A DNA stretch of 64,000 nt. Source: Hymenobacter translucens. GTDB lineage: Bacteria; Bacteroidota; Bacteroidia; Cytophagales; Hymenobacteraceae. Location: positions 62,001-126,000 of the forward strand of contig NZ_JAJERB010000011.1 in assembly GCF_020685205.1 (NCBI RefSeq), written 5' to 3'. The stretch's first letter is position 1. Every line of letters begins with the position of its first letter. The notes under the pieces are model-generated. The model saw only the letters and a list, made by a program, of their open reading frames with translations, was not told the DNA's origin and did not search any database. The translations under genes were made by a program, and so were the position numbers. This document shows positions 36,584 through 44,565 of the stretch, one piece after another.

Positions 36584-36665
36584 GCCCGGATGGCGGAACC
36601 GGTAGACGCGTCGGTCTCAAACACCGATACCGCAAGGTGTGCCGGTTCGACTCCGGCTCCGGGTA
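36584..36665 (+). tRNA. tRNA-Leu (anticodon CAA)
   Basis: An 82-base cloverleaf can be drawn by eye: acceptor GCCCGGA with TCCGGGT (one G-U at the end), anticodon stem TCGGT / ACCGA enclosing CTCAAAC with anticodon CAA, a long class II variable arm (TACCGCAAGGTGT region) and T arm GCCGG-TTCGACT-CCGGC. The discriminator base is A and CCA is not encoded. It reads UUG leucine codons. Class II Leu tRNAs are common integration sites, and an island follows directly. Confidence 0.92.
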
Positions 36666-36677
36666 CGATTAACAGCT

Positions 36678-37239: not shown

Positions 37240-38802
37240 ATGGCAGCTTTGCTTCCTGGTTATGAGTACGATATCTTCATCAGCTACCGGCATAACGATA
37301 ACCGTTTTGACGGCTGGGTTACCGAGCTTGTCACTCGCTTGCAGGAAGAACTAGCAGCTACGATCAAAGAGCGCCTGTCCATCTACTTCGACCGTAACCC
37401 TGGGGATGGATTGGGCGAAACGCATTTGGTAGATGAGAGCCTGGCAGACAAGGTTAAAGCGCTGATTCTGATTCCGATTATCTCCCAGACCTATTGTGAT
37501 ACGGAGCGGTTTTCGTGGAAGCATGAGTTTCTACCTTTTCTACAAAATGCCCGCACCGATGGTCTGGGCTTAAACATCCGGTTGCCTAGTGGCAACGTAG
37601 GTGGCCGGGTGCTGCCCTTGCGCATTCATAACCTGGATCTGGAGGATGTCAGGTTGTTGGAGCAAGCTCTGGGCGGCTACTTGCGGACGATTGATTTTGT
37701 TTACCAAGAGCAAGGCGTGAACCGCCCACTGCGATTGAAGGACGACGAGTTTCCGAACCGTCAGGGCAACTTGCTTTACCGCAATCAAATCAACAAGGTG
37801 GCAAATGCCATCAAGGAACTGGTTGCCGGGATAAAGCAACAAAGTCAGGCTCCTGCACCCCTGGTTCACACCACGCCTTCCTCCTTACCAACTACACCAG
37901 TCCCCCTGCCGCCGCCTTCGGCGCCAAGCGGGCCCGTCGTCTTTCTGGCTTGGACGTCAAAAGAGTTGGCTGCCCGTCGCGATGAGCTTGCCCTGGTATG
38001 CAGTAAAGCAGGGCTGCAGGTAACGCCCAACACTGATTGCCCGCTAGACGAGGATGAATACCGGCAACGCACCCGGGATGCCCTGGCATCGGCTACTTGC
38101 TCCGTGCACTTACTGGGCAACGAGTTTGGGCGGCGATTTGAGGACGATGAGGACTGCTCATTTCCCATGTTTGCCTATCAAGAAGCGCGGCGTCAGGTAG
38201 CCGCTCAGCCCGGGTTCCGGCAGTTTGTGTGGTATTGCCCGGACGAGAGCCTGGCCGTAAAGCCAGCTCAGCAGGCGTTTGTGACCAACATCCGCAACGA
38301 GCTAACGGAGCGCTGTACGTTTACCAGTGCTCTTAACGCCATGCAACTGGTAGAGGACCTGCGGAGCACTCTTACCCAGCCCGCTGCCTCGCCGCCAGCA
38401 GTGGAAAAGGACACGGATATTTTCTTTGTCTTCAACCAGCTGGATAGCGAAGCGGCCAATGCCATTACCGATCGGCTCGGTGAAGAAATTCCGTTAGAGC
38501 TCCTCACGATAGAACCTGACAGCGAAGACCTCTACAAGCAGATTACGGTAGAGAATATTCCCCGCAGCAAGCTAGCAGTGGTATACTTTAAATACAGCGC
38601 CGACTGGGCCCTGCCTTTTGTGAAACAGGTCTGGCGCTCAGTGGGCGGAGCCGGCTCTACAACGCCCATTCTATTTGTGGGAGAGGACGAGCCAGCTCTT
38701 AATCGGCTACGGCTCTTTAAAGCCCCCCGAGTTATTTCCTCCATTCAGAGCCACCAGAGCGTGAGTGAGGAAGTGCGCCGCATTTTTCAGCAAATCCCAT
38801 AA
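37240..38802 (+). CDS. Multi-TIR-domain protein
   Basis: A 520-residue soluble protein. Domain 1 (about 8-195) is a clear bacterial TIR domain: YDIFISYRHNDN (10-21), box with SLADKVKALILIPIISQTYCD (67-87), and FSWKHEF with Trp93 and Glu96 in the place of the NAD-hydrolase catalytic Glu. A Pro-rich linker (204-230) follows. Domain 2 (about 232-375; VVFLAWTSKELAARRDEL, then CSVHLLGNEFG) and domain 3 (about 392-515; DIFFVFNQLDSEAA, then LAVVYFKYSADWALPF) have TIR-like strand patterns but lack the Trp/Glu pair. It ends 9 bp before the STAND NTPase gene. Likely role: effector or signalling partner of that NTPase, by inference. Confidence 0.85.
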   Translation: MAALLPGYEYDIFISYRHNDNRFDGWVTELVTRLQEELAATIKERLSIYFDRNPGDGLGETHLVDESLADKVKALILIPIISQTYCDTERFSWKHEFLPFLQNARTDGLGLNIRLPSGNVGGRVLPLRIHNLDLEDVRLLEQALGGYLRTIDFVYQEQGVNRPLRLKDDEFPNRQGNLLYRNQINKVANAIKELVAGIKQQSQAPAPLVHTTPSSLPTTPVPLPPPSAPSGPVVFLAWTSKELAARRDELALVCSKAGLQVTPNTDCPLDEDEYRQRTRDALASATCSVHLLGNEFGRRFEDDEDCSFPMFAYQEARRQVAAQPGFRQFVWYCPDESLAVKPAQQAFVTNIRNELTERCTFTSALNAMQLVEDLRSTLTQPAASPPAVEKDTDIFFVFNQLDSEAANAITDRLGEEIPLELLTIEPDSEDLYKQITVENIPRSKLAVVYFKYSADWALPFVKQVWRSVGGAGSTTPILFVGEDEPALNRLRLFKAPRVISSIQSHQSVSEEVRRIFQQIP

Positions 38803-38811
38803 TTACCGTCA

Positions 38812-41800
38812 ATGGCTGCTGCCGCTGATTTCCTTTTCCCCGGCTCCCAGGAGCCTATATGTCCGTATCCGGGCTTACGCACCTTCACGGAAGAAGAGTC
38901 CATCTATTTTCGAGGCCGGGAAAGCCACGTTAGCAAGTGCTTAAGGCTGCTGGCCCAGGAGCACTTTGTGATGGTGACGGGGGCCTCCGGCGACGGTAAA
39001 TCGTCGCTCGTATTTGCGGGTATGCTTCCCGAAATTCGGGCCGGCTTCTTTCGGGCCAAGTACAGCAACTGGGTGGTAGCTACCTTCCGGCCGGAGCGTA
39101 ACCCACTGCGCAACCTGGCTCACACCTTAACCCAGGCTTTGCGCCTGGAAAACGGCACGGCCGCCGTGGAAACGGAGTTGAGCCAAGGCTTTTCGGCTTT
39201 GGTACAACTTTACCAGGCCTCCTCGCTTTGTCCTCCCGCAGCAGCAAGGGCTACCTCAGAGGAACAGCGCCGGCATCAGCACGAAGCGGCCAACCTGCTG
39301 CTGGTGGTTGATCAGTTTGAGGAATTCTTCACGAATGCGGAGAACTACGACGGCAACACGGCTAACACCGCCGCGCAGACGGTCGTGAACCTACTCATCG
39401 AGACGACGCGGCTGGCCCGACAGCAGGGACTACCGATTTACATCCTGTGCACTATGCGCTCAGACTATGTGGGCCAGTGCGCAGAGTTTCGGGGTCTGAT
39501 TGAGCTGATTGGGGAAAGCCAGTATTTTGTTCCCCGCCTGCTTCGCCACGAGTTTGTGGAGGTTATAAAGGAGCCCGCCTTGCTTAGCGGCAACCGCATC
39601 AGTGAGCGGCTGGTACAGCGCCTACTGTATGATATTCAGGATGGGCAGGATCAGCTGCCGGTGCTGCAGCACGCCCTGTATCAGATCTGGGTAGCCGCCG
39701 ACTGCGGGCGGCAGGAAATGGATTTGCGCCATTACGCCCAGGTAGGCGGCATGGCGCTGGAGGAGCTGCCTACGGCTGACCAGGCGGAAATGCGGGTTTG
39801 GCTGGCTGAGCAAGATGAGCAGCAGCGCCAGCTGCTGCAACAGCGACCGTCCCTGCACAATGTGCTGGATGCGCATGCCAACAAGCTATACTATGGCGCC
39901 GCGGGGGACTACAATAGACGACACCCCCGAACGCCCATCAGCGAGGCTACGGCCCAACGCGTACTGGAAACTACTTTCCGCTGCTTAACCCGACTGGACG
40001 CCAACCGGGTTGTGCGTAACCGGATGACCGGGGCCGAAGTCACTGCTATTATCAACGACCCCGCACTGCCTTGGCCGGTGGTCTGCCAGATCCTTATGCC
40101 TTTCCGCCGTCTGGGCAATACCTTCATCTACCCCTTTCTGACGGAGGCGGATGAGGAAAGTACCGCGTTGCCCGCCGAAACGGTTTTGGACATCACCCAC
40201 GAAAGCCTGATCCGCAACTGGACCCGGCTTACGGAATGGGCCCATGACGAGGCCAAGCAGGTTACTACTTTCCAGGAAGTACAAGCGCAGGCGCTGCGGT
40301 GGCAGGAGAATGAGCGTAGCGCCGGATTTCTGCTACCGATTGGGCTTTACACTCACTTTGCTTCCTGGTTTGCACGCAAGCAGCCCAGCGTTGGATGGCT
40401 GGCGCATTATGTAGGGGTAGAAAGTGGAGAAGTAACCCGTTCCCAAGTGGCCGAAGAGCGGCTCCAGGGTTTGCGCCGATTCTTAGAGGTAAGCCGGCGA
40501 AAGCTGCGCTTTCCACTGTTTCTGGAGCGGTACGGTGTGGGTAAAATCATAGGCTTTGTAGCCCTACTAATAACCGTACTGGCTCTGATATTTGGTTACA
40601 ACTACTGGCGGGTACGTCAGCCCGATTACGTTGCTTATCAGGCTGTTCAGGATCACCTGCCGGATCTGACATCCCGGTATATTACAACAGAGCAGAAAGC
40701 AGATTTTGTTATTGGTATCGATAGGCTTCAATCATTTTTATACAAGCCTCTATTCAGCTTTCACTCTCAGCAAGAATACCAGTTTATTAATGTATTGGAC
40801 AATTTACACGATGATACATTGGCTATTGACATTGAGCTGGATATGATGAAAAAGCTTATTACGACCGATGCGGATGGATTGCCAGTTATTAATCCAATGG
40901 CAAAGGCCGTAACACTGGATATTCATAAGCGAATCCAGCAATTTGCTCCGGCTACTGCCCCGCTTGATAGATGGAGAGAGATGAGTTTACGTGTCAGCAT
41001 TTTCATCAATGGATGTGAATTTTACACCACACATACACCCGACTCAACTGTCACAAGCCTTCGTGGTCAATACATAAAATGGATTAATCACTATGTCCAA
41101 AAAGAAATAAATTCTAATGAACTTACGAAGCCAGACCCAATCACGTTCGGCTATTGTCTAAGAACTCTTATAAGCAAAACCGATTCTACTGTTTCCTTAA
41201 ATTACCTAGAGCAGATAAATCCATTTGCATCATCGTCAAGCTATAACCGTTTTAAGCATTTTTTTCCAAGGAGAGGAGTAGTTAAATTTTCCCTTGATTC
41301 ACAGATTGGTCATAGTGGAGGGTATATGGCCTCTGCTATTATCTGCATTGCCTTGCGGGATGAGCAAGGATTTATACAATCCCTCGATTCAATCAAGTCA
41401 AATTCAGTAGCTCTTAGATACAAAGACAGCCACTTTGCCATTCCTTATCTGGTTAAATACAATTCTATTAATAACGAAAATTTAACAGACATTATTCAGC
41501 GTATCGCTGATTTATCCGACACAGATTTCTATACATCGTATAGCATATTACTCTATAAGCTTATATCCATAAGCACATCTAAAAATGTATTTTATGTAAC
41601 AACAAAGGAATGGGATGGGCTTGTTTACGCAGAAAATGTAAATACTGACCTCTACACCGCTACATCAACGCTAAATCACGAAAAAACTTGGTCAGCCTGT
41701 TTGTCGTTTGCTAATCATTCAGCTGGATTAGGTTCTGTATTCACAAACGAATTGGCCAAACATGACACTGAAATTAGCGAGCAATTTATCAAAGCGTTTA

Positions 41801-42993
41801 CATATAAGATAAACTCTATCTACTTAGCTAACTCAAGAAACAATATTGAAAGAGCAGATTCCATGTGGAATGCCCACATGAACATTATAAATTATTATCA
41901 TATGTCATTTGCTAATTATACTATTAGCCAACATTTAAATATGGATGGCACGAAAGGTTACCCAAATGGCAAAGAGCATGTTAACGCATTTGATTTTCTT
42001 TTGACCACTCGTCCACCCGTGACAAAATATTACGATGGCACACTAACCCTTGACTACAATTTTTATATTAAACAAAACAACAAATATAAAAGCATGTTGA
42101 ATTACTACATGCAAGCTACTACTGTATATGATAGCATAGCTAGTTTAGAAACAACATTACCGGGAAAGATGTGCACTCCTTTGATTTTTGATAATTATTT
42201 TTATTTCGCCTTACATACCGACAGATGGTCTAAGCCTGACACAGCCACCTTATATCAAATAGCAAAATTTAACGATCAGAATCAAGCTTTTTTAAAGCTA
42301 AATAAGCTAGCATATTATTCAAACACCATTCCTAATAATTCTGTCGTTCAACGATTAGTGAATACCATAGCGCGGAACAAAGTAATTCGATCTAAAAGCA
42401 TACATGGGCAAGCCATACGACTATTGTTATCAGACTTAGCAGTTAAATACGCTAAGCACAACCATTATGATCAACTTCAGTACTTTATTGATCCATTACC
42501 GGAAGCCATAAAACGACTCACTTATCTCAGAGTGTATGAGACTGCGCTATTTAACCATCACACTTCTGAAAAAACCAGCTTCAATAAATTTTTGTCTTCA
42601 TACATACAAGAGTATGAAAATAAGCCTGAAATGGTAGCTAGCTCTATTATAGGGCTTTTCAGTGCTAAGTGGTCTCAGAGCGATAGCACTCAGGGTGCGC
42701 AGGAAGCCTTCTTGCAGCAGACTATCAAGGAGGGTTCCTCTCGAATCGCCAGATTAGATTATTTGATAGCTGGGCGGGTCCTTGGAGGCAACTCTTATCA
42801 AGCATATCAGGAAATCCCTACTTATTTGCCCTCGAATAATGTTTTAGCGTTGATTAATACTTTGCTTCATGCTAACGCAGCTCAGGTTCTTTTGCACGCT
42901 AGTCAGCAGGAGCAGCTCTATTGGAAGGTTTATCAAGAAGATATGCTTACAGGCTGGCATGACTATAGCGGAAGTGTGAAGGCTGATTTGTAA
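38812..42993 (+). CDS. STAND-type NTPase (nSTAND1-like) with membrane segment and AT-rich C-terminal half
   Basis: A 1393-residue ATPase switch protein. The N-terminal CPYPGLRTFTEEESIYFRGRE (17-37) and the following NTPase are typical of the nSTAND1 group: Walker A GASGDGKS (57-64), Walker B LLLVVDQFEEFF (162-173, Asp167), and the winged-helix segment TVLDITHESLIRNW (457-470). One membrane helix is at about 578-597. Residues about 610-1393 show no family I recognise and are rich in Asn, Tyr, Ser and Ile; the DNA there (from about 40,660) is much more AT-rich than the first half. The C-terminal half may act as sensor. The gene follows the TIR gene by 9 bp and is surely co-transcribed. Confidence 0.85.
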   Translation: MAAAADFLFPGSQEPICPYPGLRTFTEEESIYFRGRESHVSKCLRLLAQEHFVMVTGASGDGKSSLVFAGMLPEIRAGFFRAKYSNWVVATFRPERNPLRNLAHTLTQALRLENGTAAVETELSQGFSALVQLYQASSLCPPAAARATSEEQRRHQHEAANLLLVVDQFEEFFTNAENYDGNTANTAAQTVVNLLIETTRLARQQGLPIYILCTMRSDYVGQCAEFRGLIELIGESQYFVPRLLRHEFVEVIKEPALLSGNRISERLVQRLLYDIQDGQDQLPVLQHALYQIWVAADCGRQEMDLRHYAQVGGMALEELPTADQAEMRVWLAEQDEQQRQLLQQRPSLHNVLDAHANKLYYGAAGDYNRRHPRTPISEATAQRVLETTFRCLTRLDANRVVRNRMTGAEVTAIINDPALPWPVVCQILMPFRRLGNTFIYPFLTEADEESTALPAETVLDITHESLIRNWTRLTEWAHDEAKQVTTFQEVQAQALRWQENERSAGFLLPIGLYTHFASWFARKQPSVGWLAHYVGVESGEVTRSQVAEERLQGLRRFLEVSRRKLRFPLFLERYGVGKIIGFVALLITVLALIFGYNYWRVRQPDYVAYQAVQDHLPDLTSRYITTEQKADFVIGIDRLQSFLYKPLFSFHSQQEYQFINVLDNLHDDTLAIDIELDMMKKLITTDADGLPVINPMAKAVTLDIHKRIQQFAPATAPLDRWREMSLRVSIFINGCEFYTTHTPDSTVTSLRGQYIKWINHYVQKEINSNELTKPDPITFGYCLRTLISKTDSTVSLNYLEQINPFASSSSYNRFKHFFPRRGVVKFSLDSQIGHSGGYMASAIICIALRDEQGFIQSLDSIKSNSVALRYKDSHFAIPYLVKYNSINNENLTDIIQRIADLSDTDFYTSYSILLYKLISISTSKNVFYVTTKEWDGLVYAENVNTDLYTATSTLNHEKTWSACLSFANHSAGLGSVFTNELAKHDTEISEQFIKAFTYKINSIYLANSRNNIERADSMWNAHMNIINYYHMSFANYTISQHLNMDGTKGYPNGKEHVNAFDFLLTTRPPVTKYYDGTLTLDYNFYIKQNNKYKSMLNYYMQATTVYDSIASLETTLPGKMCTPLIFDNYFYFALHTDRWSKPDTATLYQIAKFNDQNQAFLKLNKLAYYSNTIPNNSVVQRLVNTIARNKVIRSKSIHGQAIRLLLSDLAVKYAKHNHYDQLQYFIDPLPEAIKRLTYLRVYETALFNHHTSEKTSFNKFLSSYIQEYENKPEMVASSIIGLFSAKWSQSDSTQGAQEAFLQQTIKEGSSRIARLDYLIAGRVLGGNSYQAYQEIPTYLPSNNVLALINTLLHANAAQVLLHASQQEQLYWKVYQEDMLTGWHDYSGSVKADL

Positions 42994-43078: not shown

Positions 43079-43987
43079 CTAGCTCAGCCGCTGCGTTTCC
43101 CAATCTTTGGTTTGGGATAAAAGTATCTCTTCCACTTGCTGAACATACGGCCGGAAGCTACTGCCGGTGGGTGCTTCTTCACGCTCGTGGAAATTGCGCA
43201 GGTGCTGTTCCATCTGCTGATAGCGATTGATCAGGTACTCGACGTTTTCCACTTCAATGTACGCCTTGGTTAAGCCGATTGCGGAAATCAGGATAACGAA
43301 CAGGTTAAACTCCTGCAGTACCTCCGAAAGGGGGTAAAAGATGTCGATTGCGCGTACCCCGGCCCAAGATACAGCAATAAGCAAAAGGGTAATCACCAGC
43401 ACCTTATGTTGACGAAGGCGCTGGGAAAGACGCTGAACCCGGCTGGTGAAGTAGCCATACTGCTCGTGGACGCGGTTGAGCTGATACAAGTGCGCCTGCT
43501 GCTCAGGGGGCAGGTGCTGGAACATGGGCTTTTGCCGTGCTAAGTCGTCCTGAGCAATAAGGGGCACATACTCACTCGCCACATCGTCGGCGAGCAGCAA
43601 CTCCTGAAAGCGCTGCCACTGATCGGCCGAGTAGACGGTTGGACTGCTGGCCGGGCCAATATCAAAAAGGAAAAACCAAGCTTCACTTTTCAGCCGCTCA
43701 GCCTTGGCTCTCAGACGCGTCCAGTACCCAAAACGGGATTTGTGCCTGATGTGGTAGAATATCTCATACAGGGCCCCCACCATGCTGATCAGGATGACAA
43801 AAAGCTTCACGTAAGGATGCCACTTTACCTCCAGAAGCCGCGGGCTAAGGTCTTTGAGTTCGGCCAGCAGGCCTATTACTCCCAGAACCAACAAGGAACG
43901 AACGTAGGAAAACCGCCACGCCCGTTGTGCCTGGTTGGCAGCAGTATCAAGGGCATGAAAGAGAGGGACATGGTGCTCGGGGATCAT
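43079..43987 (-). CDS. Four-TM SLATT/DUF4231-like membrane protein
   Basis: A 302-residue protein with two pairs of membrane helices, about 29-46 with 59-77 and 196-214 with 227-244, each pair followed by a charged amphipathic helix. The second helix of each pair repeats the phrase FVILIS, which suggests an internal duplication. Paired-TM proteins next to SLOG domains are the hallmark of SLATT effectors, thought to form membrane pores. The start is the ATG at 43,987, which overlaps the stop of the SLOG gene as ATGA; an upstream in-frame start at 44,140 lies wholly inside that gene. Convergent with the STAND gene. Confidence 0.72.
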   Translation of the reverse strand: MIPEHHVPLFHALDTAANQAQRAWRFSYVRSLLVLGVIGLLAELKDLSPRLLEVKWHPYVKLFVILISMVGALYEIFYHIRHKSRFGYWTRLRAKAERLKSEAWFFLFDIGPASSPTVYSADQWQRFQELLLADDVASEYVPLIAQDDLARQKPMFQHLPPEQQAHLYQLNRVHEQYGYFTSRVQRLSQRLRQHKVLVITLLLIAVSWAGVRAIDIFYPLSEVLQEFNLFVILISAIGLTKAYIEVENVEYLINRYQQMEQHLRNFHEREEAPTGSSFRPYVQQVEEILLSQTKDWETQRLS

Positions 43988-44565
43988 ACGATAGGCAATG
44001 AAAAAGGCCCCAACTGGTGAACCGGGATGAGTTGCGCGCTCAGAGACGTTAAAAAGTGAAAGCTCCCCCCTGGAGTAAGCTCCTGGCTGGACTGTATAAA
44101 AGCTAGCGCTTGTAGCGATGTGCGCTGGTCTTGCGCCCACTGTTGGGCAACCTGAAGCATCGCAGCGTTGCAGTCGGCGAACTGATCGGCGTCAGGCTGA
44201 TACTGGTGGGCTGAAACTTGGGTAAGGTGCTTAGCCTCTACCAGCGCACGTACAAAGTAGGCTTCCCAAGGAGTGTCGTCATCAACTGCCTTGGGATAGT
44301 TTACCGACTCTTGCAGAAAGTCTGCCATGGCGAAGGGCAGAAACACGTGTAAGGGAATATTTCGGCGAAGGCATTCCTCGGTGACTAGCAAGTCGAAGCC
44401 AGCCGCCAAGCTACCTACGGCCGCCTGGATAGCCTGCTCCTGACTTAACTGATCCAGCAAGTCGCTGAGCTCACGCTGCACGGCTGGGACCAGCGCAACG
44501 GGAAAACGGGGTGTAGGGCGGTTTTGCCAGTCGATCCGATGCCCTGTAAAAAGAATAATGCTCAT
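43984..44565 (-). CDS. SLOG-domain nucleotide-sensing protein
   Basis: A 193-residue soluble protein with a Rossmann-like SLOG fold: strand-loop ILFTGHRID (4-12), the glycine-containing GSLAAGFDLLVTEECL (51-66) and IPLHVFLPFAMADFLQESV (70-88). This set matches the SLOG group that binds nucleotides or nucleotide-derived signals in predicted defence systems. The C-terminal third is helical. It is the first gene of a two-gene unit; its TGA overlaps the ATG of the SLATT-like gene, so ligand sensor and membrane effector would be made in matched amounts. ATG at 44,565. Confidence 0.78.
   Translation of the reverse strand: MSIILFTGHRIDWQNRPTPRFPVALVPAVQRELSDLLDQLSQEQAIQAAVGSLAAGFDLLVTEECLRRNIPLHVFLPFAMADFLQESVNYPKAVDDDTPWEAYFVRALVEAKHLTQVSAHQYQPDADQFADCNAAMLQVAQQWAQDQRTSLQALAFIQSSQELTPGGSFHFLTSLSAQLIPVHQLGPFSLPIV

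What the first reader, a model, noticed from the sequence alone, without database searches (positions are those of the whole stretch)
38812..42993. STAND NTPase with a sharp compositional break after its membrane helix
The first ~610 residues (NTPase, winged helix, TM) are encoded by GC-rich DNA like the rest of the chromosome. From about 40,660 to the stop the DNA becomes strongly AT-rich and the protein is rich in Asn, Ile, Tyr and Ser with no family I recognise. This points to a chimera in which the sensor part was acquired from a low-GC source or evolves very fast. STAND proteins of immune systems are known to swap C-terminal sensors while keeping the ATPase.
Basis: partly seen in the sequence, partly recalled or inferred. 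Interest (0 to 1): 0.66.

Follow-up and report, generated by a model that had tools for sequence, protein, structure and literature searches.

The report
TIR-linked membrane STAND with AT-rich sensor
A Hymenobacter genome carries an immune-like gene pair, a TIR enzyme and a membrane-spanning STAND receptor, in which the fast-changing sensor half of the receptor is written in much more AT-rich DNA than its surroundings.

Summary
The compositional break is real. GC3 falls from 0.68 to 0.37 at codon 574/575, beside the membrane helix (residues 576-594). It is the largest step among 86 ORFs sampled from this genome. The reading "unrelated, swapped-in sensor" is only partly right: the AT-rich half aligns end to end with the 14 full-length Hymenobacter-family homologs. 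It is the fast-evolving half of one protein family (22-26% identity against 61-67% for the first half), and the strong AT shift is nearly private to this copy. The gene is the second of a conserved operon: a TIR/DUF4062-like protein plus a single-pass nSTAND1 protein with a predicted extracytoplasmic alpha-solenoid. Outside Hymenobacter the operon carries two tandem STAND genes (31 of 36 loci). The gene beyond the STAND 3' end varies: SLATT with a SLOG-like gene here and in two relatives, LSDAT-SLATT, patatin phospholipase or a secreted beta-propeller in others. One H. ruricola pair shows exchange of the C-terminal half together with that gene. I read this as an uncharacterised TIR-STAND conflict system with an exchangeable sensor. 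Import of the AT-rich sensor is slightly favoured over drift in place, but no donor was found. No function has been tested.

The parts
36584..36666 (+). tRNA-Leu (CAA) at the left edge of the island
   Evidence: ARAGORN; DNA synteny with 7 of 7 relatives compared (of 18 with the marker gene) runs to the tRNA 3' end, in one 9 bases past it, and not into the island; composition changepoint at 36,661. No second copy of the tRNA 3' end in the window.
37240..38802 (+). TIR protein, 520 aa: first TIR domain (W93, E96), DUF4062-like middle domain, third Rossmann-like domain
   Evidence: Pfam TIR_2 E 3e-4 and DUF4062 E 0.019, both below cut-off here; of 3 relatives tested TIR_2 is over cut-off in L064 and L042, DUF4062 in L064 and L101; model hits TIR structures among others; E96 and W93 invariant in 47 of 47
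38812..40536 (+). STAND protein, first part: nSTAND1 NTPase (match 18-504) and the region up to the membrane helix, GC-rich, conserved
   Evidence: Pfam nSTAND1 E 1.8e-70; 61-67% identity to 14 homologs
40537..40593 (+). membrane helix, residues 576-594, with the compositional break just before it (codon 574/575)
   Evidence: hydropathy 2.61, 6 K/R before and 2 after; changepoint; hydrophobic segment at this place in 72 of 72 genes and 24 of 25 (L034 is below the 1.6 cut-off)
40594..42993 (+). STAND protein, AT-rich fast-evolving C-terminal half, predicted alpha-solenoid sensor, extracytoplasmic by the positive-inside rule
   Evidence: GC 0.38, GC3 0.37; alignment A1; AlphaFold2 pTM 0.75, mean pLDDT 72, nearly all helical
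43079..43990 (-). SLATT_1 two-TM effector gene, convergent (start uncertain; ORF open to 44140)
   Evidence: Pfam SLATT_1 E 9e-12 for the longer ORF; NCBIfam SLATT_1 just over its cut-off (42.8 against 41 bits); 64% to L026, 37% to L031
43984..44565 (-). SLOG-like gene paired with SLATT
   Evidence: no Pfam or NCBIfam match; the name rests on a recalled GHR motif and pairing with SLATT; a local profile also hits genes downstream of STAND-B in relatives, two of which (L064, L065) Pfam calls TPR-S

Best explanation
The gene encodes the receptor of a TIR-STAND conflict (probably anti-phage) system carried on a small island at tRNA-Leu. Anatomy shown by sequence: a TIR protein, then an nSTAND1 protein with one membrane helix and a fast-evolving helical C-terminal half, then a convergent SLATT plus SLOG-like pair. 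Inferred working: the C-terminal solenoid, outside the inner membrane, meets a trigger; the cytoplasmic NTPase part oligomerises and gathers the TIR protein; the TIR consumes NAD or makes an ADP-ribose-type messenger; death follows by NAD loss and/or an opened SLATT membrane effector. The AT-rich stretch is the sensor half. Most likely it came into this lineage by recombination from a low-GC relative of the same protein family (about 0.5), less likely by AT drift in place (about 0.35).
For: Operon: TIR stop 38802, STAND start 38812; the TIR gene accompanies the STAND gene in 17 of 20 fetched family loci (L026-L042; not in the three distant NTPase matches L043-L045) and, with two STAND genes, in 31 of 36 loci outside Hymenobacter. 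TIR E96/W93 invariant 47 of 47. Hydrophobic helix at the same place in 72 of 72 genes and 24 of 25; in 25 of 25 the net charge is higher before it than after it. C-part identity 22-26% against 61-67% for the N-part. Trees: the C-part pairs window with L026 (100/99) and rejects L026+L031 (p 0.004), while the N-part and TIR join L026+L031 and reject window+L026 (p 0.003, 0.002). L041 shares TIR end and N-part with L035 of the same genome, but its C-part with L061 (p 5e-6 against L041+L035) and its downstream gene with L032/L033/L034 (patatin, 80-85%). A SLATT, LSDAT-SLATT or patatin gene lies in the fetched stretch of 15 of 18 loci (window and L026-L042; not L030, L038, L040). Codon use of the C-part is that of an AT-rich genome (AGA 0.36 and CGC 0.00 of Arg; host 0.01 and 0.51). 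No correlation of GC3 drop with divergence.
Against: No functional test. No donor of the AT-rich part was found. C-parts are lower in GC3 than N-parts in 12 of 14 Hymenobacter and 49 of 58 other genes, so a mild AT shift is general, and L041 falls to GC3 0.48 at its end while its C-part relative L061 stays at 0.73: AT drift in place can happen. The tree conflict that involves the window rests on long branches (2.78 and 1.46) and is not supported over residues 1001-1393 (p 0.17). PADLOC finds none of the core proteins, and 87 flank ORFs of 16 loci gave fewer PADLOC families (33) than 87 ORFs sampled from this genome (64), so a defence-island setting is not shown. The window's neighbour SLOG-like gene has no family match, and SLATT is only 37% alike to that of L031.
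Confidence: 0.55

Rival explanations
1. The same system, but the AT-rich stretch arose in place: a fast-evolving sensor under weak synonymous constraint drifted to AT through the general AT-biased mutation of bacteria, without import.
For: Mild GC3 drop in C-parts of most family members (12 of 14 and 49 of 58); gradient in L041 stronger than in its C-part relative L061; window C-part still nearest to L026 of the same family; the 501-600 bin has intermediate GC3 (0.53).
Against: Best fit is one step (two segments) rather than three (a smooth gradient was not fitted); GC3 drop does not follow divergence (Spearman 0.26, p 0.35; 0.09 without the window); L031, also divergent in its C-part (mean 34% identity), shows almost no drop (-0.02).
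Confidence: 0.35
2. The C-terminal half is an unrelated sensor module joined to a GC-rich NTPase.
For: Sharp break at the domain boundary; no Pfam family over its cut-off in the C-part.
Against: End-to-end alignment with the 14 full-length homologs, with invariant residues throughout; a profile of the C-parts finds only same-family genomes in two broader draws (4 of 390 and 1 of 395).
Confidence: 0.03
3. The pair is a stress or damage sensor of the cell envelope rather than anti-phage immunity.
For: Predicted extracytoplasmic sensor; six loci have a secreted beta-propeller gene beside the STAND gene (T9SS tail by Pfam in five, the sixth, L039, in pieces by similarity); no excess of defence genes in flanks.
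Against: Patchy: 18 of 204 family genomes, this one included, match P0001, three of them only in the NTPase part; island at tRNA and a plasmid copy; rapid sensor change with broken copies in L038, L039, L042; one copy beside Cas genes.
Confidence: 0.2

Closest known systems
nSTAND1 conflict systems (Burroughs/Aravind; PMC8195603 and PMC7159879, passages seen)
   Same: nSTAND1 NTPase with variable C-terminal part, effector encoded in trans (TIR), SLATT/SLOG neighbours
   Different: Described STAND forms seen in the passages carry FGS or similar domains or death-like adaptor domains; here a membrane helix splits the NTPase from an alpha-solenoid, and no adaptor domain showed in Pfam
Thoeris (recalled) and TIR-SLATT pairs (PMC9503650, passages seen)
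   Same: TIR enzyme next to SLOG/SLATT-type genes, which fits an ADP-ribose-type messenger
   Different: A STAND receptor is part of the operon; the SLOG assignment in this window is weak (no Pfam match)
Swarozyc (DUF4062 NADase; PMC13174449, abstract, section 4 part 1 and passages seen)
   Same: DUF4062-like domain in the TIR protein
   Different: Swarozyc senses the phage portal with its own auxiliary domain; here the likely sensor is a separate STAND protein, and the best-placed Glu of the DUF4062-like domain (E315) is kept in only 36 of 47
Avs / AVAST STAND systems (recalled)
   Same: STAND NTPase with helical C-terminal sensor
   Different: No fused N-terminal effector, membrane helix present, no PADLOC match
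DGR-diversified STAND targets (PMC10907252, passages seen)
   Same: STAND proteins, sometimes paired, one with a predicted periplasmic sensor
   Different: No reverse transcriptase and no second copy of the sensor DNA found in this draft genome; no C-terminal lectin family

Membership tests
nSTAND1 NTPase | nSTAND1 profile over the NTPase region | tested here: met
   PF20703 E 1.8e-70, residues 18-504
TIR NADase | TIR fold with the catalytic Glu | tested here: met
   TIR_2 below cut-off in the window (21.7 of 28 bits), over it in 2 of 3 relatives tested; TIR structures among fold hits, not at the top; E96 47 of 47 (that E96 is the catalytic Glu rests on a recalled motif)
TIR NADase | NAD-consuming activity | not testable with these tools
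   needs a bench assay
Swarozyc (DUF4062) | DUF4062 NADase domain with conserved Glu | tested here: inconclusive
   DUF4062 over cut-off in 2 of 3 relatives tested, below in the window; E315 in 36 of 47; its equivalence to KpSwz E97 is not established
Swarozyc (DUF4062) | DUF4062 protein with its own C-terminal HTH-type auxiliary sensor | tested here: not met
   a TIR domain stands in front, and no HTH family matched the TIR proteins scanned
Avs | effector fused to the N-terminus of the STAND protein; PADLOC Avs profile | tested here: not met
   NTPase match begins at residue 18; no PADLOC match
Thoeris | TIR plus an effector whose SLOG or similar domain is activated by its product | tested here: inconclusive
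   SLATT met; SLOG-like gene without Pfam match here; LSDAT (SLOG) confirmed by Pfam near L037, L042, L061; activation not tested
DGR target | reverse transcriptase and template repeat in the genome | tested here: not met
   RVT_1 absent (control rings in 3 of 14 genomes) and C-part DNA found once; genome is a draft of 28 contigs

The most novel reading that the evidence does not exclude
A bacterial counterpart of a Toll-like receptor: a STAND protein that senses outside the inner membrane, signals through an NTPase inside to a TIR enzyme in trans, which makes a messenger for a swappable membrane or lipid-cutting effector; and the sensor half travels between lineages together with that effector gene, crossing GC boundaries.
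Probability: 0.22. Interest if true: 0.82.

Novelty: new variant of a known kind. Interest (0 to 1): 0.6.

Why it matters
STAND and TIR proteins link bacterial and animal or plant immunity, but the characterised bacterial STAND receptors that I recall sense inside the cell. A Bacteroidota operon, found in several families, with a conserved membrane helix between NTPase and sensor makes sensing from outside the inner membrane testable. The family is also a natural experiment in receptor change: against the window the TIR protein keeps 53-75% and the NTPase half 61-67%, while the sensor keeps 22-26%; the patatin genes of four relatives keep 78-85%, though SLATT (35-64%) and the SLOG-like gene (37-49%) change more. 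In one clear case a sensor half was exchanged together with the neighbouring gene. The composition break shows that a plain GC3 scan can point at the variable part of such a receptor.

Tried and rejected
Unrelated sensor module: rejected by full-length alignment. DGR diversification or silent cassettes in the same genome: no RT, no second copy. Flanking attachment repeat: no copy of the tRNA 3' end at the right side; only short chance-like repeats. Low-GC donor: not found with the C-part profile in 390 genomes drawn from the order and 395 from the phylum (draws that include same-family genomes; matches only in the same family, 4 and 1; the search scored at most two candidates per genome in the rows shown and did not report the weak relatives that STAND-B genes are, so its reach is limited), in plasmids (one hit, the H. 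tibetensis plasmid copy, 24%), in viral contigs with either profile, nor in own genome. Drift tied to divergence: no correlation. Positive selection: NG86 dN/dS is below 1 in both parts of four pairs, higher in the C-part in three of four; dS is above 1 in three of the eight values, so these are rough. Defence-island enrichment: not seen (33 against 64 PADLOC families; the control contigs are partly plasmid-like and carry CBASS-like hits). A switch of cassettes in H. ruricola (G077) was considered: one TIR 5' half and two 3' continuations meet at an identical 77-mer, but this is equally what an assembly gap would leave. My first idea that the L041 exchange breaks at the membrane helix was wrong: identity switches partner between about residues 280 and 400. 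My first claim that the window C-part is abnormally divergent was softened: window/L026 is at or somewhat below L026/L031 in most bins. The C-part model gives no significant fold match (best Foldseek E 8e-3).
Full report
The observation. The 1393-aa ORF at 38812-42993 is intact. GC3 is 0.68 up to codon 574 and 0.37 after it; two segments fit better than one or three, and fourfold-degenerate sites show the same (0.70 to 0.32). In 382 kb of this 4.96-Mb genome, window included, the gene has the largest within-gene GC3 step of 86 ORFs of at least 400 aa. Codon use after the break is that of an AT-rich genome (Arg AGA 0.36, CGC 0.00; host genes 0.01, 0.51). The membrane helix is residues 576-594, so the break lies at the domain boundary. 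The first half and the neighbours are mildly below host GC3 too, so the AT-rich half sits inside an island of intermediate composition.

The island. A tRNA-Leu (36584-36666) marks the left edge. DNA synteny with the 7 relatives compared (the best 7 of 18 with the marker gene) runs to the tRNA 3' end, in one of them 9 bases past it, and not into the island; in L188 one match resumes far beyond it, at window 46356. No attachment repeat was found. The island holds the TIR gene, the STAND gene, and a convergent SLATT gene with a SLOG-like partner. The SLOG-like name rests on a recalled motif and on pairing; Pfam gives no match.

The family. In 204 genomes of the same family, 18 (this one included) have a match to the protein, three of them only in the NTPase part. 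Fourteen loci plus the window have a full-length gene; L061, found, was added for trees. L038 and L042 are truncated, L039 is split, and L043-L045 match only in the NTPase region; these were left out of the alignments. In the multiple alignment the 14 align end to end with the window protein; single BLASTP alignments of L034 and L041 stopped at residues 1268 and 927. Mean pairwise identity per 50-residue bin is 0.62-0.85 over residues 1-500, about 0.5 over 501-650 and 0.26-0.50 after that. To the window, the C-part is 22-26% identical and the N-part 61-67%. The strong AT shift is private to the window copy: the other C-parts have GC3 0.53-0.90, with a gradient down to 0.48 at the end of L041. 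A mild fall is general: GC3 is lower in the C-part in 12 of 14 Hymenobacter and 49 of 58 other genes, mean -0.08 and -0.04, window -0.31.

Wider distribution. A GTDB-wide scan with the TIR protein gave 79 loci (best 80 kept of 218 relatives). In 31 of 36 non-Hymenobacter loci that match beyond the first TIR domain (L063-L094, L098, L100-L102; records named Cyclobacteriaceae, Chitinophagaceae, Balneolaceae and others) the TIR gene is followed by two tandem nSTAND1 genes, about 1350 aa each where complete; the other five, three with one and two with none, are cut by contig ends. L103-L130 match mostly the first TIR domain (to residue 198-324) and show no such STAND gene. Hymenobacter keeps one STAND gene; a profile of its C-part finds mainly the second paralog, weakly. 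PADLOC recognises neither the TIR nor the STAND proteins tested, and NCBIfam has no family for them above its cut-off.

Anatomy. The TIR protein has a first TIR domain with invariant W93 and E96 (47 of 47), a DUF4062-like domain whose best-placed Glu (E315) is kept in 36 of 47, and a third Rossmann-like domain with invariant P459 where a TIR would have its Glu, by my reading of the motif. Foldseek hits of its model include TIR domains, though the top hits are other alpha/beta enzymes and pTM is 0.41. DUF4062 has been shown to be a TIR-like NADase acting in anti-phage defence (PMC13174449, a preprint; abstract, section 4 part 1 and passages read). The STAND protein has a hydrophobic helix at the same place in 72 of 72 genes and in 24 of 25 of an overlapping set; L034 falls below the 1.6 cut-off, and L061 has a second weak peak at 411-429. 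In 25 of 25 the net charge is higher before it than after it, which puts the C-terminal half outside the inner membrane by the positive-inside rule. The C-part model is nearly all helical (pTM 0.75, mean pLDDT 72) with no significant PDB match.

Exchange. L041 and L035 lie in one genome (H. ruricola). Their TIR ends are 89% and their STAND first halves 85% identical in DNA, but the L041 C-part groups with L061 (100/100), and L041+L035 is rejected there (p 5e-6); in the N-part L041+L061 is rejected (p 0.01). Identity switches partner between about residues 280 and 400. The gene downstream differs too: LSDAT-SLATT at L035 (68% to L037), patatin at L041 (80-85% to L032, L033, L034). So the sensor half and the next gene seem to have moved together; but L061, the nearest C-part, does not have patatin next to it. 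Labels of the downstream gene need 5 changes on the C-tree, the minimum for six labels, and 6 on the N-tree; the difference is this one case. For the window, C-part and N-part/TIR trees conflict, but long branches may cause it, and residues 1001-1393 alone do not support it.

The neighbouring gene. Window, L026, L031: SLATT plus SLOG-like, convergent. L035, L037: LSDAT-SLATT, convergent. L032, L033, L034, L041: patatin, same strand. L027-L030, L036, and in pieces L039: a secreted DUF5122 beta-propeller protein (T9SS tail seen in the first five), convergent, with LSDAT-SLATT beyond it in L027, L029 and (a partial match at the edge) L036. L028 and L039 have SLATT divergent upstream. L042 has LSDAT-SLATT upstream of its TIR gene. 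L030, L038 and L040 show none of the SLATT or patatin genes; L061 has LSDAT-SLATT on the TIR side. Among the 31 two-STAND loci, a local profile finds SLOG-like genes in five and SLATT in three, many loci ending soon after the second STAND gene; Pfam calls two of the former TPR-S and confirms the three SLATT. SLATT has been predicted to be an ADP-ribose-derivative-regulated membrane effector, with TIR-SLATT pairs in phages (PMC9503650, passages).

Mechanism. Shown: gene order, domains, conserved residues, hydrophobic helix, fast C-part, variable neighbour. Inferred: extracytoplasmic sensing, NTPase oligomerisation, TIR activation in trans, messenger or NAD loss, effector opening. The AT-rich sensor is either imported (about 0.5) or drifted in place (about 0.35). 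Points for import: step shape, full codon-usage change, no link of GC3 drop with divergence. Points for drift: general mild fall, the L041 gradient, no donor found. The defence reading rests on families and patchiness; a direct test of neighbourhood enrichment failed (33 PADLOC families in 87 flank ORFs against 64 in 87 ORFs of this genome).

Prior work. Searches of the library for nSTAND1 with TIR, STAND C-terminal sensors, DUF4062 with TIR and STAND, STAND with transmembrane and periplasmic, Hymenobacter defence, membrane-anchored NLR, SLATT with SLOG and TIR, and Thoeris with patatin listed no paper whose title, abstract start or read passages describe this operon; the papers listed were mostly not read, and the library lacks most subscription journals. 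PMC10907252 predicts one STAND-linked sensor to be periplasmic (passages), so the idea of outside sensing has a precedent.

Noticed in passing
L097 end, L096 start, L099 start (G077 contigs C8, C10, C29): In H. ruricola one TIR 5' half and two different TIR 3' halves meet at an identical 77-mer; either an assembly junction with a lost fourth contig or a rearranging locus.
   Followed up: partly
L042:1-8985: A truncated copy of the system lies beside what read as Cas genes in the translations; PADLOC Cas1b and Cas7b profiles each match one of the 87 flank ORFs, the member not being named.
   Followed up: no
L038:8921-10984, L039:7860-12253, L042:8985-10382: STAND genes broken by truncation or frame change while the TIR gene stays open.
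   Followed up: partly
L027:6738-10757, L028:3719-7744, L029:12325-15741, L030:12485-15991, L036:1815-8945: A secreted DUF5122 beta-propeller protein with T9SS tail is convergent to the STAND gene; pairwise identities about 37-51%. Possible partner of an extracytoplasmic sensor.
   Followed up: partly
L147:7565-8506: AT-rich gene for a repeat protein (leucine-rich-like by eye) next to a transposase-like gene on a contig with a ParA-like gene; another AT-rich spot of the sampled genome.
   Followed up: no
L148-L160 (own genome sample): PADLOC profiles for CBASS-type cyclase and NucC, E1-E2, JAB and type II methyltransferase ring in the sampled ORFs.
   Followed up: no
L031:15536-15608, L034:14294-14664, L037:12473-12545: tRNA-Arg, tmRNA and tRNA-Glu genes lie within about 2 kb upstream of the TIR gene in three of 17 other loci scanned.
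   Followed up: no
   Followed up: no
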